A program made the position numbers and the translations under genes. A stretch of DNA of 52,315 nucleotides from a virus. Shown piece after piece: positions 1 to 42,010 of the stretch (position 1 is the first letter of the stretch; each line of letters opens with the position of its first letter). The DNA lies in the IMG/VR virus record IMGVR_UViG_3300042562_002373, positions 1 through 52,315 of that record; one strand, given 5' to 3'. The notes beneath the pieces are model-generated. The model saw only the letters and a list, made by a program, of their open reading frames with translations. It did no database searches and was not told where the DNA came from.

Positions 1-1462
1 CCATATGGTCAGGTCTACCATTTTTATAGATATATGTTTTCATCTCATGGATTAATCGTATTGAATTAATCTTAATAGTATTAGTTCTGATAGCTATCTC
101 TAAATTTGATATTAGCTGTAACCTACAACCGTTAATATTAAATCCAACTACTTTATTATCTTTAGTTTTCTCGTCATAATATAAATTAGGATATTTCAAT
201 TCAACTAATTTACTTGTCGTAGTATTTCCTACACCGATATTATCCACAATCAAAAACGCATCATATTTTAAACCATATATATTTAACACTTCTGCAAAAT
301 TATCTGGTGGTATTTTACCTTGGAACTCAACAACTTGTTCCATTGTTGTAAAATCTATAATCTGGAAACACGAATAATCGGCCCCATCGCCTCTAGCAAT
401 GTCAGCCGCCATTATATATTCATGACCTTCAATAGGTTCAGACCAAATCCATATTAAACCACTATTACCATCATAATATGTTTTATCAACATACTTTGGT
501 TCAGTTACATTATTCTTCTCATGGAAATCGATATATTCATCATCTATTACGTTACCCCCAGAACCTAAGAAAGATACATCTAACTCTTGCGCAATCTTCT
601 TCTTATCGTTATTCATGTTCTTACACATGTTTATATACCAAGAAGAGGCTGGCTTCCAACCATCTTTTATTCTTTTAGCGTATGAGTCAAGTTTAAATTC
701 GTATTCTTTAACGGTTTCGTCATTTTTGGTCCAACTTAAATCTTTATTGTACCTAGGGTCTTCATACCATTTTAATTCTATAATATTATATGTGTTCTCA
801 CCCCTCTTAGCTTGTTCATAAGTTTTATAATACAATGGGTCATAACCATTTGGTGTTGAAATTAATATCGCTCTACCCCCAGTACCTAACGATGTTACAG
901 CCGCTGCATATAAATCAGCACCTCTATCGATAAAGGCTGCCTCATCAAAGATTAGGAATGTTGGTGTATACCCCCTTAATGCATCCTCAGATGTTGCTAC
1001 AGCAATAATCTTAGAACCATTAGGTAATTCAACCTCAATTTGAGAATCTTTTACAAAGATACTTTTCTTCTCTTTATCTTTATCACCATAATATTCATTA
1101 CCCCATACCCATCTAGGTAATTGGTTAACATAGTCTTTTATCCCTTTTAAGAACTTCTTAGCCAATGTTAACTTATTGGCGATAACAATTATCGTCTCAG
1201 GGTTTTTAGGGTCAGCAAATCCAATCTTTATAGCACAATAACCTTGTGTGGTTGTTGATATACCAGCTTGTCGTGGTTTAGTTACTAAATTAAATCTATG
1301 ATTCTCATATGCTCTAACAATTTCTTTCTGTCTAACAAAAAGTTTAAACGGAACAAAACCCTCTTGCGTTTTATCAAATGTCTGTAAATAGGTCTCAATC
1401 GCATAGATTGGGTTATCTAGACACTTCGCATACTCCTCAAATATTTCTACTGCTGTTAGCAT
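1..1462 (-). CDS. Terminase large subunit, T4 gp17-like (3' end off window)
   Basis: Motor ATPase and nuclease that packages DNA into the prohead. About 487 residues are visible from an ATG at 1462; the C-terminal end lies beyond base 1. The ATPase half has a P-loop of the T4 type (TKPRQAGISTT, residues 61-71) in which the usual GKT is replaced, as in gp17 relatives, and a Walker B segment FLIFDEAAF (169-177). The nuclease half begins with MAADIARGDGADYS (351-364), matching the first metal-binding Asp region of the RNase H-like gp17 nuclease. The gene follows the minus-strand structural block and has its own late-type element at 1468-1482. Strong call; portal and capsid genes are expected further left. 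Confidence 0.93.
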   Translation of the reverse strand, partial: MLTAVEIFEEYAKCLDNPIYAIETYLQTFDKTQEGFVPFKLFVRQKEIVRAYENHRFNLVTKPRQAGISTTTQGYCAIKIGFADPKNPETIIVIANKLTLAKKFLKGIKDYVNQLPRWVWGNEYYGDKDKEKKSIFVKDSQIEVELPNGSKIIAVATSEDALRGYTPTFLIFDEAAFIDRGADLYAAAVTSLGTGGRAILISTPNGYDPLYYKTYEQAKRGENTYNIIELKWYEDPRYNKDLSWTKNDETVKEYEFKLDSYAKRIKDGWKPASSWYINMCKNMNNDKKKIAQELDVSFLGSGGNVIDDEYIDFHEKNNVTEPKYVDKTYYDGNSGLIWIWSEPIEGHEYIMAADIARGDGADYSCFQIIDFTTMEQVVEFQGKIPPDNFAEVLNIYGLKYDAFLIVDNIGVGNTTTSKLVELKYPNLYYDEKTKDNKVVGFNINGCRLQLISNLEIAIRTNTIKINSIRLIHEMKTYIYKNGRPDHM

Positions 1463-8743: not shown

Positions 8744-10918
8744 TTATTTAATCATTATTAATATTCTGGTTCCAACCTCGTTTTTTTCACAAGTAATATT
8801 GAATCCATGCTCTTTAAGTATTGCTATACATATGTTTAAGCCCAATCCAGAGCCACTTTCTTTTTGATTTTCTTTTCTAGTATATGGTTCAGATAATTTA
8901 TTAAAATCATCTTGAGACATACCTCTACCATTATCTTGGATAGCAATATGTGAGTCATCTTCCATAAAAATCGCAACTACTTTTGAGTCAGAATCATTAT
9001 ATTTAAGACCATTACGAATTAAATTATCAATTGCTGTACAAAATAAAGGTTCGTTAACATCTAATGTTGGTAACCAATCAATCACAACTTGACTTGAATA
9101 TGCTGTTGATGATAAATATGAATTTAGAATATCTCTTAAATTTAAATGTTCTTTAGTTAATACAACATCTTCTTTAACTAAGTTAGTGAATTCATAAACT
9201 CCTTTGTAAACTTTTTGTGTATGTTTAAGACCTTCCTTAAGCATTTTTAATGGTGCTTCTAATTTCAAACGTTCAATGTCTTCTTTCTTTAATCTTCGTT
9301 CTAACGAACTAATTCCTCTTGGAATGTATGTATTTATTCCAGAATGCATATCATGTCTTAGAATCTTCGCAGCGTGTTCTAAATATGTATTTTTCTTTTC
9401 AATCTCTCTCTTTTGTTCATAAGAAATGGTAACATCTGTTGCAATTTTCATAATACGATAAACCTTACCGTCAACACCAACAATTGGGTTGTAAGTCGCT
9501 TGCAAATAAACTAAAGAACCATCTTTTTTTGTTCTAACAATTTCACCTGAAAATGATGAACCTTCTTTTAATTTTTCCCAAAAAAGATGATAATCGTCAC
9601 TTTTAGAATATTCTTTATCTACAAAAATTCTATGATGACCTCCAACTATTTCCTCACATGATGAATATCCCATAGTTTCTATGAATAAATCATTAGCAAA
9701 AATGATATTACCTTCTAAATCAAATTCAATAACTGCATTAGATTTATTTATAGCACTCATTCTATTATGAATTTCAACTTCCTTTTTTTTAAGTTCAGTA
9801 ACGTCTTGACGTATAGACATGAATCCTTCAAGTTTACCATCATCATCAAAACTAGCTTTTACAGAAGTATCTAAATAGTAAAGGTCTCCGTCTTTTTTCT
9901 TGTTGGTAACCACTTCATTCCATATCTTTTTATCCTTTACAACTGTTTTGTGCATATTATCCCAATATTCTGGTGGTATTGCAATAAATGGTACTGTTCC
10001 TAAATCTTTAGAATTTGAACTAGAGTTTACTATATTATGGTCTTTACCAATAGCTTCTTCTAATGACCATCCAGAAACATCAGTAAATTTCTGATTAATA
10101 TAAGTTATCTTTCCACGCTTATCAGCTTTACTAACCAATACAGATGAGTTCACAAAATGCTGAAACTCAGCTAATTCATTCTTAAGTTCGTTACCTTCTT
10201 GAACTGAATAAGCAAATGAGTATAATGACGATAACATTTCAGCAAAAGTAACTTCCACTTTATGCCATTCTCTAACTGTATAGCTTTCAATACAGATTAC
10301 ACCAATTACTTCACCTTTATAAACGATTGGAACGTCAAGCATTGCTTTAATACCTAATGGGTCTGAATAAGTTTCTTTAAAACATTGTGTTGATGGGTGT
10401 AAATTAACATCATTTGCAATTATAATCGGATTTGTTTTAAGACCACTGAAATATGGTTTATAATCTTTTTCAAAAATCTTAATACCATTAACCCATTCAC
10501 CAGTTTTTTTCTCATATAATTGTTCACATACAATACTTGTTTTTTTCTGGTTGTATAACCAAATAGAACATCTATCAGCACATATACTATTGGTAACTTC
10601 TTTAGTTAATAATTTTGCCCCATCAGTAACATTACCTTCATAGAATAATGGGTTATGAGTTTGAGAAATTAATGTTTCATTTAAATTTCTAGCGTAATAG
10701 TTTAGTTTAACGGATTCTTTGTTTTTATTTAAATAATCTTTAATCATTGTACCAAATAATGGTATAAGGGTTATAAAACATAAAAATTCAGTCCATCTAG
10801 TAATGACACATGATGGTACATAACCAGTTAATACACATAATTTTACAATTAAAAATATCGCCATAACTATTACTGCGAATACAAAACTAATAATTGAGCT
10901 CTTTTTAAGGTTAATCAT
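8744..10918 (-). CDS. Membrane-bound sensor histidine kinase (GAF-PAS-PAS-HisKA-HATPase)
   Basis: 724 residues from ATG 10918, chosen because it sits 7 bases after a late-type element. Two membrane segments (about 9-31 and 43-60) are followed by a GAF-like domain (about 85-240), two PAS domains (about 250-375 and 385-500), a phospho-acceptor helix with H522 in ILRHDMHSG, and an ATPase domain with N box (DNLIRNGLKYND, 631-642), G1 DNGRGM (662-667) and G2 GSGLGL (689-694). All key residues are present, so the enzyme should be active. The adjacent receiver is the likely partner. Ligand unknown. The domain set is that of bacterial kinases, so acquisition from a host is likely, but the base composition is like its neighbours. 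Confidence 0.92.
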   Translation of the reverse strand: MINLKKSSIISFVFAVIVMAIFLIVKLCVLTGYVPSCVITRWTEFLCFITLIPLFGTMIKDYLNKNKESVKLNYYARNLNETLISQTHNPLFYEGNVTDGAKLLTKEVTNSICADRCSIWLYNQKKTSIVCEQLYEKKTGEWVNGIKIFEKDYKPYFSGLKTNPIIIANDVNLHPSTQCFKETYSDPLGIKAMLDVPIVYKGEVIGVICIESYTVREWHKVEVTFAEMLSSLYSFAYSVQEGNELKNELAEFQHFVNSSVLVSKADKRGKITYINQKFTDVSGWSLEEAIGKDHNIVNSSSNSKDLGTVPFIAIPPEYWDNMHKTVVKDKKIWNEVVTNKKKDGDLYYLDTSVKASFDDDGKLEGFMSIRQDVTELKKKEVEIHNRMSAINKSNAVIEFDLEGNIIFANDLFIETMGYSSCEEIVGGHHRIFVDKEYSKSDDYHLFWEKLKEGSSFSGEIVRTKKDGSLVYLQATYNPIVGVDGKVYRIMKIATDVTISYEQKREIEKKNTYLEHAAKILRHDMHSGINTYIPRGISSLERRLKKEDIERLKLEAPLKMLKEGLKHTQKVYKGVYEFTNLVKEDVVLTKEHLNLRDILNSYLSSTAYSSQVVIDWLPTLDVNEPLFCTAIDNLIRNGLKYNDSDSKVVAIFMEDDSHIAIQDNGRGMSQDDFNKLSEPYTRKENQKESGSGLGLNICIAILKEHGFNITCEKNEVGTRILIMIK

Positions 10919-10925
10919 AAATTCT

Positions 10926-10941
10926 TTTATTAAATAAATAT
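10926..10941 (-). promoter_or_regulatory. Putative phage late promoter (signalling operon)
   Basis: ATATTTATTTAATAAA on the minus strand, a one-base-longer form of the late element, ending 7 bases before the kinase ATG. Predicts late expression of the kinase, regulator and membrane protein. Confidence 0.55.
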
Positions 10942-10955
10942 CTAATAAAATAAGA

Positions 10956-10983
10956 AAACCCCTAGGAAATTCCATAGGGGTTT
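10956..10983 (-). terminator. Rho-independent terminator
   Basis: 9-bp stem AAACCCCTA/TAGGGGTTT followed on the minus strand by TTTTCTTATTTT. It insulates the kinase operon from the YceI-like gene upstream. Confidence 0.85.
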
Positions 10984-22393: not shown

Positions 22394-23551
22394 TTAAAAT
22401 GGTAACGCTACTTCTGGTTTATTATATTCATTATTATAATCTTCTTCTGACATACCAAGCATTTTAACGTTGAATTCCTTAATGTATTTTTGTACCATTT
22501 CATCTAACCCAACTGGTGCATTGCAATTGTTATAACCTCTAAATTGACCATATACTAATCCTTTGTCACTCCAGTCTTTTCTAACTTCTAAAGTATAACC
22601 ATCAATATGGTAAATACCACATGTATGTGATTCTACTCTATTAACATAAGTTGCAACACAATGTTTATTCTTTTTACCTTCAATACACATCTCCTTAGTT
22701 GTAGTTAATATAGTGAAATTAGCGAACTCAGAAAATTTAAGGAATATTGGATGAATAACCATTTTTCTATCAGCATCCATATACGTAATATCAGTAATTT
22801 CTTCTGACCATAAATCATGCATCTCCTTTAGACGTTTTAACTTCCATTTACAGTTTACCTTTCTATTTAAAACTCTAGCCATTTTAACAGTATCTGTAAA
22901 TAACATAGTATTAGTTTTAATAAGTTCAGCGTCAAATGATGTAATATTCTCAAGATATTCTAAATTCTTTTTAAAATGATTTATAAACATTTGAACATCA
23001 TGATTATATGTTTTTTCATTCACCTCATGAATTGCATTACCAACTGGATATGGTACATTATAAGTATGTAAGATTGCTTTCTTATATGAATACAATTTCT
23101 TACTAACTATGGTATTGAAAGCTATGTTAGTTAATATATTTTTCTCTTCTACAAATCTTAACCATGTAAAATTCTCTTTTAAATATTCAATAACTGGGTG
23201 ACACCATTGACCGAAAGCTGAATGTAAATTAAATAATGTTAATGGTTTAACACCACGATTAAATATTAAATAAAATTTACCATTCTTATAGCTGATATTA
23301 GCCATTCTACGTTCACTATTGTAGATTCTATTGGTCTTAGATATACCAAATGATTTCTTGAATAATACAATATTAAATGTATTACCTTCAGTAAACAAAA
23401 CTACCTTCATGTATGAATACATATCTTTAGCGTTATTCATATATATAACCCTAGCATTATAAGGGTTATTACGATACACTTCAAATAATCGTTCAACAGC
23501 TGAACATTTATCTTCAAATAATACTTTGTAATCAAAATTTTCTTTCTCCAT
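22394..23551 (-). CDS. PcfJ-like protein
   Basis: 385 residues. The C-terminal half fits the PcfJ-like family: KRLKEMHDLWSEE, then GKKNKHCVATYVNRVESHTC, then YHIDGYTLEVRKDW and YGQFRGYNNCNAP. PcfJ is known from conjugative plasmids and phages; its biochemical function is not established. The N-terminal half is lysine/aromatic rich. Host-type promoter at 23568-23597 with RNase H downstream. Confidence 0.85.
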   Translation of the reverse strand: MEKENFDYKVLFEDKCSAVERLFEVYRNNPYNARVIYMNNAKDMYSYMKVVLFTEGNTFNIVLFKKSFGISKTNRIYNSERRMANISYKNGKFYLIFNRGVKPLTLFNLHSAFGQWCHPVIEYLKENFTWLRFVEEKNILTNIAFNTIVSKKLYSYKKAILHTYNVPYPVGNAIHEVNEKTYNHDVQMFINHFKKNLEYLENITSFDAELIKTNTMLFTDTVKMARVLNRKVNCKWKLKRLKEMHDLWSEEITDITYMDADRKMVIHPIFLKFSEFANFTILTTTKEMCIEGKKNKHCVATYVNRVESHTCGIYHIDGYTLEVRKDWSDKGLVYGQFRGYNNCNAPVGLDEMVQKYIKEFNVKMLGMSEEDYNNEYNKPEVALPF

Positions 23552-28573: not shown

Positions 28574-29617
28574 ATGGAAGTTAAAGTTAGTTATGTATCG
28601 AAATTACCTTTATTAGGTGATTCTCCAAAAGTTACAATCTATGATGAGGGTAATAAAGAATATATTGTTCAATTTATTGATTCATTTGGTTTGATTGTTA
28701 ATAGTGGTACTTATAAACCAAATGATTTAATGTTTGGTGGTAGACAATGGTTTAATGGCTGGGTTATTATTGTTCGTGATACAGAAGATAATATTTTATT
28801 TACTACTAAATTCGATGCAAAAGGTGAAACTGTTTTTATTAAATTAGATGCATACGCATTAGGTGATACTATTGCATGGATACCATTTGTTGAAGAGTTT
28901 AGATTAAAACATGAATGTAATGTTATCTGTTCAACTTTTCATAATAAGATATTAGCTGATGCTTATCCTAATATTTTATTTGCGGAACCAAATACTCAAA
29001 TACAAAATATATATGCTCAGTATTATATTGGTGCTAGTAGTGATGGTAATATTAAATATTCACCAATTATTACTGATGAAAATCCATTACAGAAAACTGC
29101 ATCAGAAATATTAGGCATGCCTTATAAAGAAATCCGACCAGATTTAACTCCAGTTATTAAACATGAACCTAAACCTAACAGAGATAAAAAATACGTATGT
29201 ATTTCTGAATATGGTAGTACTGATAAAAAGATGTGGAAAGAAGGTTTGGATGGTTGGCAAATTATTGTAGATTATTTAAACGATAATGGTTTCGATGTAT
29301 TGGTTATATCTAAAGAAGCTACTGAATTACAAAACGTGGTTAATGTAACTGGGGATATTTCTTTAATCGATAGAATGGTAGATTTATATCACTGTGAGTT
29401 CTTTATTGGTGTATCATCTGGGTTAGCATGGTTGGCTTGGGCCTTAGGTAAACATGTTGTTATGATTAGTGACGTAACACCTAGTGACCATGAGTTCTAT
29501 ACTGATTGTACAAGAATTAATGCTAACTTTTTAAAAAAGGTAGACTATAATGAGGAATTTTATAGTACAATTCCAGAAGTAATAAAAGATTTAAAATATT
29601 TGATACATGGAAGGTAA
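28574..29617 (+). CDS. Autotransporter heptosyltransferase-like glycosyltransferase
   Basis: 347 residues. N-terminal strand domain (about 1-85), then ALGDTIAWIPFVEEF, YVCISEYGSTDKKMW and CEFFIGVSSGLAWLAWALGK, which match the bacterial autotransporter heptosyltransferase family (TibC-like). Those enzymes transfer heptose to Ser of surface proteins. The C-terminal Cys cluster that binds iron in TibC appears absent: after DCTRINANF only one Cys is nearby. Substrate is therefore uncertain; it may glycosylate phage or host proteins. Same operon as SLOG and cREC. Confidence 0.85.
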   Translation: MEVKVSYVSKLPLLGDSPKVTIYDEGNKEYIVQFIDSFGLIVNSGTYKPNDLMFGGRQWFNGWVIIVRDTEDNILFTTKFDAKGETVFIKLDAYALGDTIAWIPFVEEFRLKHECNVICSTFHNKILADAYPNILFAEPNTQIQNIYAQYYIGASSDGNIKYSPIITDENPLQKTASEILGMPYKEIRPDLTPVIKHEPKPNRDKKYVCISEYGSTDKKMWKEGLDGWQIIVDYLNDNGFDVLVISKEATELQNVVNVTGDISLIDRMVDLYHCEFFIGVSSGLAWLAWALGKHVVMISDVTPSDHEFYTDCTRINANFLKKVDYNEEFYSTIPEVIKDLKYLIHGR

Positions 29618-31841: not shown

Positions 31842-31914
31842 TGACATGTAGCTCAGTTGGAAGAGCACTACTATTTTAATGTAGAGGTCGGTAGTTCGAA
31901 TCTACTCATGTTAT
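31842..31914 (+). tRNA. tRNA-Lys (UUU)
   Basis: Acceptor TGACATG/CATGTTA, D-arm GCTCAGTTGGAAGAGC, anticodon loop ATTTTAA with anticodon TTT, T-arm GGTAG-TTCGAAT-CTACT. The overall pattern resembles bacterial tRNA-Lys. U31-U39 do not pair and position 32 is A, small oddities. CCA is not encoded. Confidence 0.88.
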
Positions 31915-32010
31915 CAAAGGTGGGAGTAATTAGCCCAACCCTAACAAGAATGTCTATCATATAGCTTAAAGAGATTTGGTACCACTAATTTCTGATGATA
32001 ATTCTTGATT

Positions 32011-32303: not shown

Positions 32304-32377
32304 GGCCTCATAGCTTAATCGTATAAAGCAACGCACTTCTAATGCGTAGAGTGAAGGTTAGAATCCTTCTGAGGTCA
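32304..32377 (+). tRNA. tRNA-Arg (UCU)
   Basis: Acceptor GGCCTCA/TGAGGTC, D-arm GCTTAATCGTATAAAGC, anticodon stem ACGCA/TGCGT with loop CTTCTAA (anticodon TCT), T-arm GAAGG-TTAGAAT-CCTTC, discriminator A. All stems pair. Decodes AGA, the Arg codon most used in this window's genes. CCA not encoded; a T8 tract follows. Confidence 0.92.
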
Positions 32378-32405
32378 CTTTTTTTTAATTTAATCTTTAA
32401 AAAAT

Positions 32406-32436
32406 TTGTTTATTGATTATATTATGTATATATTTG
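32406..32436 (+). promoter_or_regulatory. Host-type promoter
   Basis: TTG at 32406, 20 bases, TATATTTG at 32429-32436. Reads into the small gene at 32465. Confidence 0.62.
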
Positions 32437-32464
32437 TACCATGTTTAACTTAAATAATAAAAAT

Positions 32465-32644
32465 ATGACAACAATTATGCCAGAAGAAATTCAAACATCA
32501 CCGATTAATAATTCAATTAATAACATGGATATGGTCGCATGGTGGACTAAAAACGGAGACGGAAATTTTAATTGGGTATTATACCATCAAATTATTCAAG
32601 CCAAAAGATTCTTAATTGAGAATCACTCCGATATGGAAAAATAA
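32465..32644 (+). CDS. Small hypothetical protein, 59 aa
   Basis: ATG at 32465 preferred: an ATG at 32441 would begin almost at the transcription start. MTTIMPEEIQTSPINNSINN then MDMVAWWTKNGDGNFNWVLY. Polar, no domain recognised. Followed five bases later by the RlpA-like gene. Confidence 0.62.
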   Translation: MTTIMPEEIQTSPINNSINNMDMVAWWTKNGDGNFNWVLYHQIIQAKRFLIENHSDMEK

Positions 32645-33835: not shown

Positions 33836-34756
33836 ATGAAACTGGTAATATTTTTCTTACTGTTGTCATTCTATTCTATGGGTCAAACCACAATAGTAAA
33901 TGAACAATTCGCTTCAACACCACCAACTGGATGGTTATCAACAACACCTTCTGGATGGGCTACTAATAATTATGGAGCTAGTAATGCTCGTTCTGGTTCA
34001 TATGCATTAAGATTATCAAGTGCATCTAATAATAATGGTAAATATTTATATATCCCAATCAATGTTCAAAATGGTTATACTTATACAATAACATTTTGGA
34101 CTAAAAGAATTTGTAGTACAACAATAAACACAAATGAAACCGCTAATCAAACAACATTATTATCTACATTCACTCAAACAAATTCTAATTGCAACTCAAA
34201 TTGGAGTACTTGGTATCAATGGAGCAATACATACGTACCAACATATACTGGAACTATGTATTTTCAGATATTAGCAAATACTGTATATTTTGGACCTACA
34301 TCAATTTATATTGAGGATGTTACAATAGTTGAATCACCACCAGTTGAATTACCAATTGAATTATTATATTTTAAAGGTAGAAAATCACTTGAAGGTAATT
34401 TATTACAATGGGAAACTGCTTCAGAAAATAATAATGATTATTTTACAATATACCGCTCAACATATCCAATAGAATGGTTACCTATTGTGGAAATTGATGG
34501 TGCTGGTAATTCAATTACAAATAATAAATACCAATTCCTCGATTCGCGATTTGAGGATGATATTAATTATTATGTATTAAGGCAAACTGATTACGATGGT
34601 AAATATAAAGAATGTGAAATAATATCAATTGATAACAGAACCCCATATATTACACCAGTTAGAATAGTAAATTCTATTGGTCAAGAAGTGTCAATCGATT
34701 ACAATGGATTAAAATTCGTTACTTACGAGGATGGTTCTGTGGAAAGGCTTTATTAA
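33836..34756 (+). CDS. Secreted beta-rich protein with type IX secretion-like C-terminus
   Basis: 306 residues. Signal peptide MKLVIFFLLLSFYSMG with likely cleavage before Gln17. Residues about 20-165 form a jelly-roll-like, Ser/Thr/Asn-rich domain seen in surface carbohydrate-binding proteins. Residues about 172-262 (PIELLYFKGRKSLEGNLLQW, YFTIYRS, YYVLRQTDYDGKYKE) match a fibronectin-like module common in secreted Bacteroidota proteins. The last 34 residues (VRIVNSIGQEVSIDYNGLKF, VTYEDGSVERLY) resemble a type A T9SS sorting signal. So the phage appears to export a protein through the host's T9SS. Late promoter upstream. Confidence 0.83.
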   Translation: MKLVIFFLLLSFYSMGQTTIVNEQFASTPPTGWLSTTPSGWATNNYGASNARSGSYALRLSSASNNNGKYLYIPINVQNGYTYTITFWTKRICSTTINTNETANQTTLLSTFTQTNSNCNSNWSTWYQWSNTYVPTYTGTMYFQILANTVYFGPTSIYIEDVTIVESPPVELPIELLYFKGRKSLEGNLLQWETASENNNDYFTIYRSTYPIEWLPIVEIDGAGNSITNNKYQFLDSRFEDDINYYVLRQTDYDGKYKECEIISIDNRTPYITPVRIVNSIGQEVSIDYNGLKFVTYEDGSVERLY

Positions 34757-34757
34757 A

Positions 34758-35564
34758 TTATGGTTCATATCTACTTGTACTATCCTTACCAAATAAATGT
34801 TTACCAATTTGTTTAGTAGATGTCCAACTTTCTGAACCCTCACCCCATTTAGGTGTAACTTTTGATGGGTTATAATAACTAGTAGCACCATTAGTATTAT
34901 CTTCTATTGTATTAATATACTTTGCGATGTTAACTGCTTTTTTCCAAACTTCGTCATTATTAGGGTAAGCGTCTTCAACATATCTTTTATGTACATCTTG
35001 AATTTTATCACCATCAATAGTATGTGAATTCCACATAGAAAATTGTTTTCTTTCTAATGCAATTTGAGCAACACTTTTACCAGTAGCCTTAGCTCTGTTC
35101 TTTAATACATTTGCTACAGCCCTCATGCCAATTCCTCCCTCACCACCAGCTTCACCAACTAAAGTAGTAGCAATAATAAAGTTGCTAGTTGATAATGGTT
35201 TTTCTATAGGTATTATTTTATCAGCAATCTGTTCAATATCTTGTTTAATTACACTTTTAGTCGCTTCTAAAGGTTTTTCTTTATCAATACCACCATTAAG
35301 ACCAATTAAACCTATAACACTCGCTATAGCAGTTGCTCTTAATTTCTTTTTAACATCTGAAGACGAAGAATCATACTTATCTTTAATTTTATTAAAGTAT
35401 TCAGTTGCCTTATCTTTAATAGATGTTTTATTATCTATATTCCATTCATATTCGTTTTCACCAGTTTTATTACCAGTAAAAACTTCATTAAGCATTTGCT
35501 TTGCGTAAACCTTTATAAATAAATCCTCTTTTAATTGCTCTAATATCAATGCTTTAGTACTCAT
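34758..35564 (-). CDS. Leader-bearing SleB-type cell-wall hydrolase
   Basis: 268 residues from ATG 35564, ten bases from a late element. Leader MSTKALILEQLKEDLFIKVY, then a charged helical region, a hydrophobic stretch (RATAIASVIGLIGLNGG, about 76-92), and a C-terminal SleB/Hydrolase_2 domain: TTLVGEAGGEGGIGMRAVAN with E138, NVLKNRA, FSMWNS, NGATSYYNPSK. Such enzymes cut peptidoglycan. With the leader and late promoter, the likely place is inside the virion, acting at DNA entry rather than at lysis. Confidence 0.88.
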   Translation of the reverse strand: MSTKALILEQLKEDLFIKVYAKQMLNEVFTGNKTGENEYEWNIDNKTSIKDKATEYFNKIKDKYDSSSSDVKKKLRATAIASVIGLIGLNGGIDKEKPLEATKSVIKQDIEQIADKIIPIEKPLSTSNFIIATTLVGEAGGEGGIGMRAVANVLKNRAKATGKSVAQIALERKQFSMWNSHTIDGDKIQDVHKRYVEDAYPNNDEVWKKAVNIAKYINTIEDNTNGATSYYNPSKVTPKWGEGSESWTSTKQIGKHLFGKDSTSRYEP

Positions 35565-35573
35565 AAAATCTTT

Positions 35574-35588
35574 TTTATTAATAAATAT
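35574..35588 (-). promoter_or_regulatory. Putative phage late promoter
   Basis: Exact ATATTTATTAATAAA on the minus strand, nine bases before the hydrolase ATG. Lies back to back with the host-type promoter at 35609. Confidence 0.62.
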
Positions 35589-35608
35589 CGATTTTTTAGT
35601 AAAAAAGT

Positions 35609-35640
35609 TTGCATTAACCGAATTAAAATACCTATATTTG
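35609..35640 (+). promoter_or_regulatory. Host-type promoter (NAD genes)
   Basis: TTTG ending at 35611, 21 bases, TATATTTG; 18 bases before the ATG at 35659. Confidence 0.75.
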
Positions 35641-35658
35641 TCAAAAGAAATTATACAT

Positions 35659-36510
35659 ATGAGAGCAGTTATTAATTTAGACGAAAACTTTAAACCATTT
35701 GGTAAAGAATTTACCGAGTTGGAATACCAGAAGTTTAGTTTCCCAAGTGGTTGCGAACCACACATTAAAATTATTGAAAAGAATTGGATGATAGGTGGTA
35801 ATGAAGTTATTATTACGACTAGAATTAAATCTTCAGAAGATTTGATGATTTTATTATTAGCTACCGATGCTTTAAAACGATTAGGGTTTACATATATTAA
35901 ACTATTTATTCCTTACCTACCGTTTGCTAGACAAGACCGCGTTATGGTTGGTGGTGAACCTTTATCAATTAAAGTTTTAGCAAACATTATTAATTCACAA
36001 GAATATAGTAAAGTTGCGGTATATGACGTACACTCTGAAGTGTCTTTAGCGTTAATTAATAATTGTGACCCAGTTAGTAATCATAACATTGTTAAACAAA
36101 TCTTAGCTGATAAGAAAGATTACTACATTGTATCACCAGATGCTGGCGCATATAAGAAAATCTTCAAAGCTGCACAATTCGTTGGTTATACAGATGCTAT
36201 CGTATTATGTAATAAAATCAGAGATGTAAAAACTGGTCAAATCTTAAATATGACTTGTGATGTAAATGATTTACATGGTAAAGATGTTTATATCATTGAT
36301 GATATTTGTGATGGTGGTGGTACATTCATTGGTTTAGCTGATAAACTTAAAGAGAATAATGCTGGTAACGTTAATTTAATTGTATCACATGGTATTTTCT
36401 CTAAAGGTATTGAGGCCTTACATAATATTGACCACATATACACTACTGACTCATTCCAAGACTTGGAACCAAATAATAAGTTAACTCAAATTAAATTAGA
36501 ATTCAAATAA
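35659..36510 (+). CDS. Ribose-phosphate pyrophosphokinase-like enzyme (Prs or Adps)
   Basis: 283 residues from ATG 35659, placed by the promoter. Prs landmarks: IPYLPFARQDRV (84-95), VYDVHSE metal site (121-127), VSPDAGAYKK (158-167) and the PRPP-binding loop VYIIDDICDGGGTF (210-223). It is about 30 residues shorter than usual Prs (near 315). The NadV-like gene follows 11 bases later. Either the pair makes PRPP and then NMN, or, as in the recently described NARP1 phage pathway, it makes ADPR-pyrophosphate for direct NAD rebuilding. The sequence alone does not decide. Confidence 0.9.
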   Translation: MRAVINLDENFKPFGKEFTELEYQKFSFPSGCEPHIKIIEKNWMIGGNEVIITTRIKSSEDLMILLLATDALKRLGFTYIKLFIPYLPFARQDRVMVGGEPLSIKVLANIINSQEYSKVAVYDVHSEVSLALINNCDPVSNHNIVKQILADKKDYYIVSPDAGAYKKIFKAAQFVGYTDAIVLCNKIRDVKTGQILNMTCDVNDLHGKDVYIIDDICDGGGTFIGLADKLKENNAGNVNLIVSHGIFSKGIEALHNIDHIYTTDSFQDLEPNNKLTQIKLEFK

Positions 36511-38474: not shown

Positions 38475-39407
38475 ATGATTAGTACATTAATTTTTGTAGC
38501 AGCGTTAATTATCGCAGCATTAGTAGCTATCTCAACGAAAGATAGTATGTTCGAAGGAACTGGTTATAACCGTGAATTCAGATTCGTATGGTTATTGAAA
38601 CCGATTGGTATCTTTATCTTAGGTATCATCTTAGCATCAGCACAACCATTCGCTATCGAAAGAATCGATGCTGGACATGTTGGTATCAAAGTAAACTTAA
38701 CTGGTAACAGTCGTGGAGTTTCTAAGTATGAGTATAAAACTGGATGGGTTTTATATAATACATGGACTGAGAACATCTACGAGTTCCCAACATTCCAACA
38801 ACACATTGAGTTTGAAGCACAACAAGTAATTACACGAGGTGGGTTCCCAGCGGATATCAAACCTACATTCAATTACTCATTGAAAGCTAATGCTGTTGGA
38901 GATATGTTCGTTAACTTACGATTACCAATTAAAGATATTGAACAAGGATGGTTGAAAAATGCAATCGTTGGTGCTGTGAATGACGTGGCTAACGGATGGG
39001 AAGTAGATTCAGTATTTGGACATAGACAAGCGTTTGAAGCTGCTATCGTAGCTGAATGTAATGTAAGATTATCTAAATGGTTTACAGTGTCTCAGATGCG
39101 TTCTAATATCGTTCCACCAGAAGCGTTGCAAGAATCTATTATAGCTAAAACAAAATCTATACAACAAGCAGAAGCATCTATTCAACAAGCAATTGCTGCA
39201 CAAGCTGATGGTCAACGTAAAGTTGCTGTAGCTAAGGCTGACTCTGCTGAGATGATTATTAATGCATCAGCACAAGCATACTCAATTAGATTGAAACAAA
39301 AAGAGTTAACACCAAACTATATCGAATTCAAGAAAATCGAGAAATGGGATGGTCAATTACCTACTACTGTTGCTGGTTCATCAGGAAGTTTCATAAATAT
39401 TAAATAA
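38475..39407 (+). CDS. SPFH/prohibitin-family membrane protein
   Basis: 310 residues. Two N-terminal hydrophobic segments (MISTLIFVAALIIAALVAIS and IGIFILGIILASAQPF), an SPFH domain (about 62-215: IDAGHVGIKVNLTGN, GWVLYNTWTENIYEFP, VPPEALQESI) and a coiled-coil tail rich in Ala and Gln (TKSIQQAEASIQQAI). SPFH proteins such as HflK/HflC form membrane rings that control the FtsH protease. Third-position C/G is higher than in neighbours, so expression is probably high. A role in protecting phage proteins or in membrane changes is inferred. Confidence 0.9.
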   Translation: MISTLIFVAALIIAALVAISTKDSMFEGTGYNREFRFVWLLKPIGIFILGIILASAQPFAIERIDAGHVGIKVNLTGNSRGVSKYEYKTGWVLYNTWTENIYEFPTFQQHIEFEAQQVITRGGFPADIKPTFNYSLKANAVGDMFVNLRLPIKDIEQGWLKNAIVGAVNDVANGWEVDSVFGHRQAFEAAIVAECNVRLSKWFTVSQMRSNIVPPEALQESIIAKTKSIQQAEASIQQAIAAQADGQRKVAVAKADSAEMIINASAQAYSIRLKQKELTPNYIEFKKIEKWDGQLPTTVAGSSGSFINIK

Positions 39408-40403: not shown

Positions 40404-40700
40404 ATGAAAGATTTATACGCAAGTTTAAACGAAAATAATCCAGCACATAAAATGGTGATGAATATTAATAAGAAAAATGAAGAGTTATATGGTCCATATC
40501 ATAGTGAATGTGGATTGTTCCAAACTTTTTGTCATTGCGAGTTCCCTGAAATAAAATCCAATGAATTATCTGAAGCTAATAAAGAGATTTATTCAGATAT
40601 CGAGACTCTTATTATGCATTGGTGTAATGATGGTACCAAAACTGCTGGTACATTAACTAGAAGAATAATGTATGAATTAAATAAAAAAAATATATTATGA
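40404..40700 (+). CDS. Hypothetical protein, 98 aa
   Basis: ATG at 40404 rather than the TTG at 40392. MKDLYASLNENNPAHKMVMN; contains three Cys/His-rich points (HSECGLFQTFCHCEF) that may bind zinc. Overlaps thyA by four bases (ATGA). Confidence 0.72.
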   Translation: MKDLYASLNENNPAHKMVMNINKKNEELYGPYHSECGLFQTFCHCEFPEIKSNELSEANKEIYSDIETLIMHWCNDGTKTAGTLTRRIMYELNKKNIL

Positions 40701-42010
40701 ATAATTTAGATAAACAATACACAGCATTACTACAAGATATACTTGATAATGGTCATCAGAAAGGTGACCGAACTGGAACTGGAACTATATCAGTATTTGG
40801 TAGACAGATTCGCCACAACATGAAAGATGGGTTTCCGCTTATCACTACAAAGAAAATGTACTGGAGTGGCATCGTAACCGAGTTAATTTGGTTCTTGCGT
40901 GGTGATACAAACATTAAATTCCTTGTGGATAATAATTGTCATATTTGGGATGGAGATGCCTATAAGAATTATTGTAATGATAAGAATACAGTAGGCCCAT
41001 TAACAATGGCACAATTTATTGAAGAGATAAAAACGAATGACGAGTTTGCTAATAAATGGGGTGAATTAGGTCCCGTGTACGGAAAGCAATGGAGAGAATG
41101 GACTTACTTAACTAAAGAACAAAAACAAGATGTTGATGGAATAGATGAAGAAATATGTGGAGCTGATATGTGGGATGGCATTAGACATTATAGAACATTT
41201 GACCAAATCGCAAACCTAATCCATGACCTTAAAACAAACCCAGATTCAAGACGTTTGATGGTCAACGCTTGGAATGTTGGAGAATTGGATTCAATGGTAC
41301 TTCCACCTTGCCATTATGGATTTCAAGTTTATACAAGAGAGTTGAGTGGTGAAGAAAGATGGGATTTATTAAAGAAGAATGTTGGTAAAGAATTATTTGA
41401 TTCTTGGGTATCTGAAATAGTTCCGTTCGGTGGTGGATTAAGTGAATACTTACAATCATATAATATCCCAACCAGAGCAATCTCATTAATGTGGAATCAA
41501 CGTTCAGTAGATACATTCTTAGGTTTACCATTCAATATTGCATCTTATGGATTGTTATTGGAAATCATTGCCAAAGCAGTAAATATGGTTCCTGAAGAAT
41601 TAATAGGAAACTTAGGTGATACTCATCTATATTCAAATCATATTGAACAAGCCAAAGAACAAATTGGTATGGAATTGAGTAATGAAGAACGTTATAATAT
41701 TTGGTTCACTAATAATTATGAGACTGGAATGGAAAGATTCTTTGACCCAAATAATTTACCAGATTTTGAAGATTCATATTACGAACCAACACCTAAACGA
41801 ACTAGAGAACCATATCCATTACCAACATTAAATATCAACACAGAGTTCTGGCAATATGAAGGTGGAGAATGTGGAATAGGACCATTGGATGCAACTGGTG
41901 TAATTAAAGCATTTAGTGATGATAATTTCTGTAGATGCTTATTGGAAGAAGATATTCAATTAGGTAACTACCAATCACACCCATCTATTAAGGCTCCATT
42001 GTCAAATTAA
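40697..42010 (+). CDS. thyA: Thymidylate synthase, enlarged
   Basis: 437 residues. Makes dTMP from dUMP with methylenetetrahydrofolate. Motifs in order: GDRTGTGTISVFGRQIRHNM, TELIWFLRGDTN, LGPVYGKQWREW, DSRRLMVNAWNVGELDSM, the nucleophile C205 in LPPCHYGFQVY, RSVDTFLGLPFNIASYGLLL and GDTHLYSNHIEQ. Usual length is 264-320; extra segments lie before YRTFDQI, after VYTREL (about residues 215-250) and at the C-terminus (about 60 residues). All catalytic parts are present. Confidence 0.95.
   Translation: MNNLDKQYTALLQDILDNGHQKGDRTGTGTISVFGRQIRHNMKDGFPLITTKKMYWSGIVTELIWFLRGDTNIKFLVDNNCHIWDGDAYKNYCNDKNTVGPLTMAQFIEEIKTNDEFANKWGELGPVYGKQWREWTYLTKEQKQDVDGIDEEICGADMWDGIRHYRTFDQIANLIHDLKTNPDSRRLMVNAWNVGELDSMVLPPCHYGFQVYTRELSGEERWDLLKKNVGKELFDSWVSEIVPFGGGLSEYLQSYNIPTRAISLMWNQRSVDTFLGLPFNIASYGLLLEIIAKAVNMVPEELIGNLGDTHLYSNHIEQAKEQIGMELSNEERYNIWFTNNYETGMERFFDPNNLPDFEDSYYEPTPKRTREPYPLPTLNINTEFWQYEGGECGIGPLDATGVIKAFSDDNFCRCLLEEDIQLGNYQSHPSIKAPLSN

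What the first reader, a model, noticed from the sequence alone, without database searches (positions are those of the whole stretch)
33836..34756. Phage protein that appears to use the host type IX secretion system
Signal peptide, jelly-roll-like and fibronectin-like domains, and a C-terminal 34 residues resembling a type A T9SS sorting domain, all from a late-type phage promoter. It suggests the phage decorates or modifies the surface of infected cells through a Bacteroidota-only secretion route.
Basis: partly seen in the sequence, partly recalled or inferred. Interest (0 to 1): 0.8.

Follow-up and report, generated by a model that had tools for sequence, protein, structure and literature searches.

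The report
Phage protein with short secretion tag
A phage of Flavobacteria-like bacteria carries a probable sugar-binding protein that ends in a short version of the address tag bacteria use to push proteins out through their type IX secretion system, and at least 60 further distinct phage genes end in the same tag, so these phages probably change the outside of the cells they infect.

Summary
The ORF at 33836-34756 is real and lies on a phage contig (terminase at the left edge). It has a signal peptide, a carbohydrate-binding-like jelly roll, an FN3 domain and a C-terminal tail of about 34 residues. Curated type A T9SS profiles do not recognise the tail. It nevertheless behaves as a sorting tag. 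It sits at the extreme C-terminus in 126 of 126 family hits. It occurs on unrelated bacterial proteins, up to 18 per genome, in Flavobacteriales that have T9SS. It aligns collinearly with the C-terminal half of type A domains (profile score 18.95, against a maximum of 15.7 in 400 permutations). It keeps the near-invariant Lys/Arg. Eleven of 29 viral contigs of this family also carry bona fide type A cargo, in three contigs as a contiguous cassette with a subtilase and SprB repeats. About 95% of viral members have signal peptides, against 7% of control ORFs. Passenger domains are diverse and swapped between phages. Best reading: a phage-encoded T9SS cargo with a short variant sorting domain. 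Phage-encoded type A cargo was already reported (Bellas 2020), so this is a new variant and a large extension, not a new kind. The 'late promoter' claim is not supported. Secretion and function are untested.

The parts
33836..34756 (+). Focus gene, 306 aa: signal peptide + jelly-roll passenger + FN3 + short C-terminal sorting tail
   Evidence: relatives
33836..33883 (+). Sec signal peptide (residues 1-16, predicted cleavage before Gln17)
   Evidence: sequence; rule-based scan positive in 71 of 75 complete viral relatives against 41 of 564 control ORFs
33884..34348 (+). Variable passenger domain, carbohydrate-binding-like jelly roll (residues 17-171), shared with five other phages
   Evidence: weak CBM4 sequence match 1gui_A
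34349..34639 (+). FN3 domain (residues 172-268)
   Evidence: conserved in 80-row alignment A3
34652..34753 (+). Short T9SS-type sorting tail (residues 273-306), RIVNSIGQEVSIDYNGLKFVTYEDGSVERLY, with Arg at the conserved Lys position (residue 304)
32406..32436 (+). Putative flavobacterial-type promoter of the operon, TTG-N20-TATATTTG
   Evidence: 7 of 53 genes against 0.5 expected
32441..32644 (+). Operon gene 1, unknown 67 aa
   Evidence: 97% identical in L003
32650..33015 (+). Operon gene 2, small double-psi beta-barrel protein (weak DPBB_1 / expansin-like match) with a likely signal peptide
   Evidence: DPBB_1 E 1e-4, below the gathering score
33015..33503 (+). Operon gene 3, unknown 162 aa
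33503..33805 (+). Operon gene 4, unknown 100 aa
34758..35765 (-). Convergent cell-wall hydrolase (Hydrolase_2 / endolysin), replaced by a different lysozyme-like protein in the syntenic phage L003: the other half of a variable cassette

Best explanation
The gene encodes a phage-made cargo of the host's type IX secretion system. Sec exports it to the periplasm and removes the signal peptide, leaving Gln17 at the N-terminus. The short C-terminal tail, probably together with the adjacent FN3, is taken by the SprA/PorV-type translocon as a reduced type A-like CTD. The jelly-roll passenger, likely a glycan binder, is then displayed on or released from the infected cell. The FN3+tail is a constant export module and the N-terminal part is an interchangeable passenger that phages recombine. 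Shown here: domain anatomy, the C-terminal rule, collinearity with type A, the distribution, mixed cassettes with true type A cargo, and mosaic passengers. Inferred: actual T9SS transport, surface location, glycan binding and a role in masking receptors or changing adhesion of infected cells (superinfection exclusion is one option, about 25%).
For: Real phage: terminase at 5-1462 (-). Signal peptide in 64 of 68 complete viral short-tail ORFs, 71 of 75 of all viral family members, against 7% of control ORFs. Tail ends at most 13 aa from the stop in 126 of 126 hits and at most 6 aa in 123. hhalign of the tail profile with the type A profile scores 18.95, against column-permuted nulls of mean 8.3, sd 1.9, max 15.7. 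Lys or Arg in 68 of 71 at a C-terminal position, as at the functionally important Lys of type A CTDs (PMC10994853). In bacteria the same FN3 is followed either by a classic type A CTD or by this tail, and the tail also sits on signal-peptide proteins without FN3. Tail found in 159 of 299 genomes of one Bacteroidota order; SprA in 297 of the same 299 and in 157 of the 159 tail-bearing genomes. Eleven of 29 viral contigs also carry TIGR04183 above its cut-off. L113 is a run of five same-strand genes: subtilase + SprB repeats + PF18962, SprB + PF18962, SprB, then two short-tail genes. Passengers fall into 21 unrelated clusters with CUB, MAM, P_proprotein, GEVED and GBD_T9SS_assoc domains. Reciprocal mosaicism.
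Against: No curated T9SS profile recognises this protein. Characterised type A CTDs are about 100 aa with seven strands (PMC12618676); the tail has three predicted strands. The window protein has Arg where most have Lys. In an even draw across the phylum the tail is absent (0 of 295 other genomes), so it is not a universal T9SS signal. Since nearly every genome of the order has SprA, co-occurrence does not discriminate. The host is not identified, and no secretion experiment exists for this tail as far as was found.
Confidence: 0.77

Rival explanations
1. The protein is Sec-exported but stays in the periplasm or goes to the outer membrane by another route; the tail is only a small structural cap on the FN3 domain.
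For: The tail is much shorter than a type A CTD and is missed by T9SS profiles. It usually follows the same FN3.
Against: The tail occurs without FN3 on unrelated signal-peptide proteins, is always C-terminal, aligns collinearly with type A, keeps the C-terminal Lys/Arg, and is interleaved with true type A cargo in phage cassettes.
Confidence: 0.15
2. It is a virion or lysis-stage structural protein (fibre or baseplate accessory) whose hydrophobic N-terminus is incidental.
For: FN3 and jelly-roll domains are common in phage tails (Foldseek viral hits).
Against: A near-universal signal peptide would take it away from cytoplasmic virion assembly. Same family and tail in bacterial genomes. The recognised neighbours are NAD and nucleotide metabolism genes and an endolysin, not recognised structural genes.
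Confidence: 0.05
3. A T9SS cargo picked up from the host that serves the host rather than the phage (a moron, e.g. adhesion or polysaccharide binding of infected cells), not receptor masking. This rival accepts T9SS export and differs only on the purpose.
For: Bacterial relatives are common and the phage and bacterial rows mix on the tree, with weak support. Passengers are adhesion or binding domains.
Against: Reciprocal passenger swapping between phages and a variable locus next to a variable endolysin look like phage-host arms-race variation. No lysogeny genes were identified in the part of the window examined.
Confidence: 0.35

Closest known systems
Cryophage T9SS cargo proteins (Bellas et al. 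2020, PMC7468147)
   Same: Phage genes predicted to be exported by the host T9SS; the cargo is highly variable between phage variants; superinfection exclusion was proposed there.
   Different: Those have standard type A domains on enzymes and a PA14 protein. Here the tag is a short tail missed by the profiles, the passengers are binding domains, and the family is spread over many phage contigs.
T9SS type A sorting domain (TIGR04183 / PF18962, Por_Secre_tail)
   Same: Extreme C-terminal position, collinear strand order IYD-x-x-G-q-x-V ... G-I-Y ... K, near-invariant Lys/Arg, signal peptide, follows the same FN3 in bacteria.
   Different: About 39 aa with three strands instead of about 100 aa with seven; lacks the N-terminal YPNP half; no significant profile hit for this protein.
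Type B T9SS domain (TIGR04131)
   Same: C-terminal T9SS signal.
   Different: Type B is 150-235 aa and linked to PorP/SprF shuttles (PMC12618676); no type B hit in the NCBIfam scans and no PorP/SprF-like hit among the window genes examined.
Uncultured Caudovirales proteins in BFVD, e.g. A0A6J5M2J1 'Secretion system C-terminal sorting domain'
   Same: Phage proteins with related folds; one already carries the T9SS tail annotation.
   Different: Annotation only; not described as a family with a short tail.

Membership tests
T9SS type A cargo (TIGR04183 / PF18962) | Sec signal peptide | tested here: met
   Sequence and rule-based scan
T9SS type A cargo (TIGR04183 / PF18962) | Match to the type A profile above the curated cut-off | tested here: not met
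   No hit at E up to 10 for the whole protein or the tail alone, none in Pfam; 2 of 80 relatives weakly
T9SS type A cargo (TIGR04183 / PF18962) | Seven-stranded Ig-like beta-sandwich of about 100 aa | tested here: not met
   Tail about 39 aa, strands 274-279, 293-297, 302-305 in the model
T9SS type A cargo (TIGR04183 / PF18962) | Near-invariant functional Lys near the C-terminus | tested here: inconclusive
   62 Lys + 6 Arg of 71 in the family; Arg in the window protein
T9SS type A cargo (TIGR04183 / PF18962) | Homology of the tail to type A domains | tested here: met
   Profile-profile score beyond all 400 column permutations
T9SS type A cargo (TIGR04183 / PF18962) | PorV/SprA-dependent secretion | not testable with these tools
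   Needs a secretion assay
Phage-encoded T9SS cargo (Cryophage kind) | Gene lies on a phage genome | tested here: met
   Terminase large subunit in the window; terminase in 9 of 29 related viral contigs
Phage-encoded T9SS cargo (Cryophage kind) | Cargo variable between related phages | tested here: met
   66% identity in a block where most genes are 86-98% identical; passenger swapping
Phage-encoded T9SS cargo (Cryophage kind) | Host has T9SS | tested here: inconclusive
   Host unknown; the tail occurs in a Bacteroidota order in which 297 of 299 genomes have SprA
Type B T9SS cargo (TIGR04131) | Match to the type B model | tested here: not met
   No NCBIfam hit
FN3 domain | FN3 fold | tested here: met
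   Z 11.8, rmsd 2.5 over 86 residues to 4u49_B, residues 175-268
Carbohydrate-binding module / MAM jelly roll | Beta-sandwich fold match | tested here: inconclusive
   CBM16, CBM4, CBM61 and MAM matches at E about 1e-3 to 1e-4 from a pLDDT 69 model

The most novel reading that the evidence does not exclude
The tail is a distinct, minimal T9SS sorting signal (about 39 aa, three strands) used by a lineage of Flavobacteriales and adopted by many of their phages as a plug-in export module. With it the phages display exchangeable binding proteins, in some cases together with SprB-repeat and subtilase cargo, on infected cells.
Probability: 0.55. Interest if true: 0.75.

Novelty: new variant of a known kind. 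Interest (0 to 1): 0.6.

Why it matters
If true, phages of abundant aquatic Flavobacteriales routinely rework the outside of infected cells through a Bacteroidota-specific secretion machine, using a tag that current annotation misses. The tag gives a host clue for orphan phage contigs, a candidate minimal T9SS signal for biochemistry, and a testable route to superinfection exclusion or adhesion control in a group where such mechanisms are hardly known.

Tried and rejected
Direct profile searches with the protein, the tail alone and FN3+tail against NCBIfam and Pfam found no T9SS hit. PHROGs gave only a weak tail-protein hit. The Pfam Phospholip_A2_2 hit (E 0.006, below the gathering score) was rejected because the fold matches are CBM/MAM-like and the hit covers only part of the passenger. 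The late promoter was tested and rejected. T9SS co-occurrence was tested but is not discriminating, because nearly all genomes of the order have SprA. An even draw of the phylum found no other tail, which restricts the tail to a lineage. The tree of FN3+tail mixes phage and bacterial rows (13 changes against 33 shuffled), but starred branches force only one, so repeated exchange is suggested, not shown. No cultured phage with the FN3+tail was found among 50,697 deposited records, only four uncultured huge phages. VIA-align and Foldseek did not test the tail by itself as a CTD fold.

Full report
What is there. The window is a 52 kb phage fragment: the left edge encodes a terminase large subunit, most similar to those of Microcystis phage Mel-JY01 and Flavobacterium myophages (about 31-32% identity). 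The ORF at 33836-34756 (+) is 306 aa. It starts with a clear signal peptide (MKLVIFFLLLSFYSMG^QTT). It then has a jelly-roll-like domain of about 155 residues, an FN3 domain (residues 172-268) and a tail (RIVNSIGQEVSIDYNGLKFVTYEDGSVERLY). The full model has mean pLDDT 79, with FN3 and tail at about 87-97. The FN3 is secure (Z 11.8, rmsd 2.5 over 86 residues). The N-domain modelled alone matches CBM16, CBM4, CBM61 and MAM beta-sandwiches, with moderate confidence.

Is the tail a type A T9SS domain? Not by the curated test: NCBIfam and Pfam give nothing T9SS-like for this protein or its tail even at E=10, and among 80 relatives only two touch TIGR04183, weakly. Characterised type A domains are about 100 aa seven-stranded sandwiches with a near-invariant functional lysine near the end (PMC12618676; PMC10994853). 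The tail here is about 39 aa with three predicted strands. I therefore do not file it as type A.

Does it work like one? Several independent lines say yes. (a) The same FN3+tail is found at 83 to about 35% identity in 118 viral stretches (80 loci kept), and the FN3 in more than 560 bacterial stretches, with all kept bacterial loci in Bacteroidota. In bacteria the same FN3 is followed either by an ordinary type A domain or by this tail. (b) The tail is at the extreme C-terminus in 126 of 126 hits. It also stands on bacterial signal-peptide proteins without the FN3 and occurs up to 18 times per genome. (c) hhalign of 104 tails against 69 type A domains gives 18.95, against a maximum of 15.69 for 400 column-permuted tails, with the conserved VxIxN-x-x-GQeV and G(I/L)x(I/V)...K elements in register. 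A PDB chain whose C-terminal residues read KVYNLQGQRVATNYHGIII is the only PDB sequence hit, in the same register (E 0.016). (d) The Lys/Arg near the end is kept in 68 of 71; it is Arg in the window protein. (e) 159 of 299 genomes of one Bacteroidota order (the draw includes Crocinitomicaceae such as Fluviicola and Brumimicrobium) carry the tail, against none of 295 others in an even draw of the phylum. SprA is present in 297 of those 299 and in 157 of the 159 tail-bearing genomes, so T9SS is available but co-occurrence does not discriminate. (f) Of 29 viral contigs of the family, 11 also carry genuine TIGR04183 domains. In L113 (142.7 kb contig; the same arrangement in a 229 kb contig with a terminase) five same-strand genes follow each other: subtilase + SprB repeats + PF18962, SprB + PF18962, SprB, and two short-tail proteins.

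Export and passengers. A simple signal-peptide rule finds 64 of 68 complete viral short-tail ORFs, and 71 of 75 of all viral family members, against 41 of 564 control ORFs from the same contigs. Three of the four misses look like signal peptides by eye and the fourth is a broken gene. The N-terminal parts of viral members form 21 unrelated clusters, and the Pfam hits are mainly binding or adhesion domains: CUB, MAM, P_proprotein, GEVED, GBD_T9SS_assoc. The window's passenger is shared with five other phages. Identities show a mosaic. Window against L003 is 59% in the passenger but 83% in FN3+tail. Window against L004 is 84% but 43%. L003 against L096 is 87% but 56%. In the syntenic phage L003 most neighbouring genes are 86-98% identical while this protein is 66%, and the convergent endolysin is replaced. 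This is a variable locus with swapping passengers on a constant export module.

Expression. The gene is the last of a five-gene operon beginning at 32441, with 30 bp in front of it. A flavobacterial-type promoter lies at 32406-32436; the motif is upstream of 7 of 53 genes against 0.5 expected. A T4-late-like motif is not present at the gene. The recognised genes next to it are PRPP synthetase, NAMPT, SPFH and thymidylate synthase.

Interpretation. Shown: anatomy, the C-terminal rule, relation to type A, distribution, mixed cassettes and mosaicism. Inferred: transport by the host T9SS (about 0.77), display or release at the cell surface, glycan binding, and a role in altering adhesion or blocking further infection. 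Bellas et al. 2020 (PMC7468147) already described phage-encoded type A cargo in one phage, called it a unique occurrence and proposed superinfection exclusion. The present finding is a new variant (a short tail invisible to profiles) and shows that the strategy is widespread in metagenomic phages. No cultured phage with the FN3+tail was found in 50,697 deposited records, so the direct test is a reporter fusion in a laboratory Flavobacterium.

Noticed in passing
L113:1-6420: A phage cassette of five same-strand genes: subtilase + SprB repeats + type A CTD, SprB + type A CTD, SprB, and two short-tail proteins. Phage-borne SprB gliding-adhesin repeats with T9SS tags deserve their own study.
   Followed up: partly
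34758-35765: Endolysin locus: cell-wall hydrolase here, an unrelated lysozyme-like protein at the same place in the otherwise 86-98% identical phage L003.
   Followed up: partly
40697-42010: Thymidylate synthase of 437 aa with about 100 extra residues inside the domain; in L003 the match is split by about 400 bp, perhaps an intein, intron or other insert.
   Followed up: no
8744-10975: PAS/GAF sensor histidine kinase-like protein encoded by the phage.
   Followed up: no
28574-29617: Glycosyltransferase family 9 (heptosyltransferase-like) gene, possibly another surface-modifying function.
   Followed up: no
38475-39407: SPFH/Band 7 (stomatin-like) membrane protein in the phage next to NAD salvage genes.
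   Followed up: no
31842-31915, 32304-32378: tRNA-Lys(ttt) and tRNA-Arg(tct) genes just upstream of the operon.
   Followed up: no
12301, 22394, 23786, 30192, 30539, 32441, 39664 (gene starts as listed; 22394-23551 is on the minus strand): Flavobacterial sigma-consensus promoters (TTG-N17-23-TAnnTTTG) upstream of seven genes, far above chance; a host clue.
   Followed up: partly
L005:4691-6369: In huge phage LR745206 the relative is split: a signal-peptide protein ends and the FN3+tail continues in another frame, so the gene looks broken or frameshifted.
   Followed up: no
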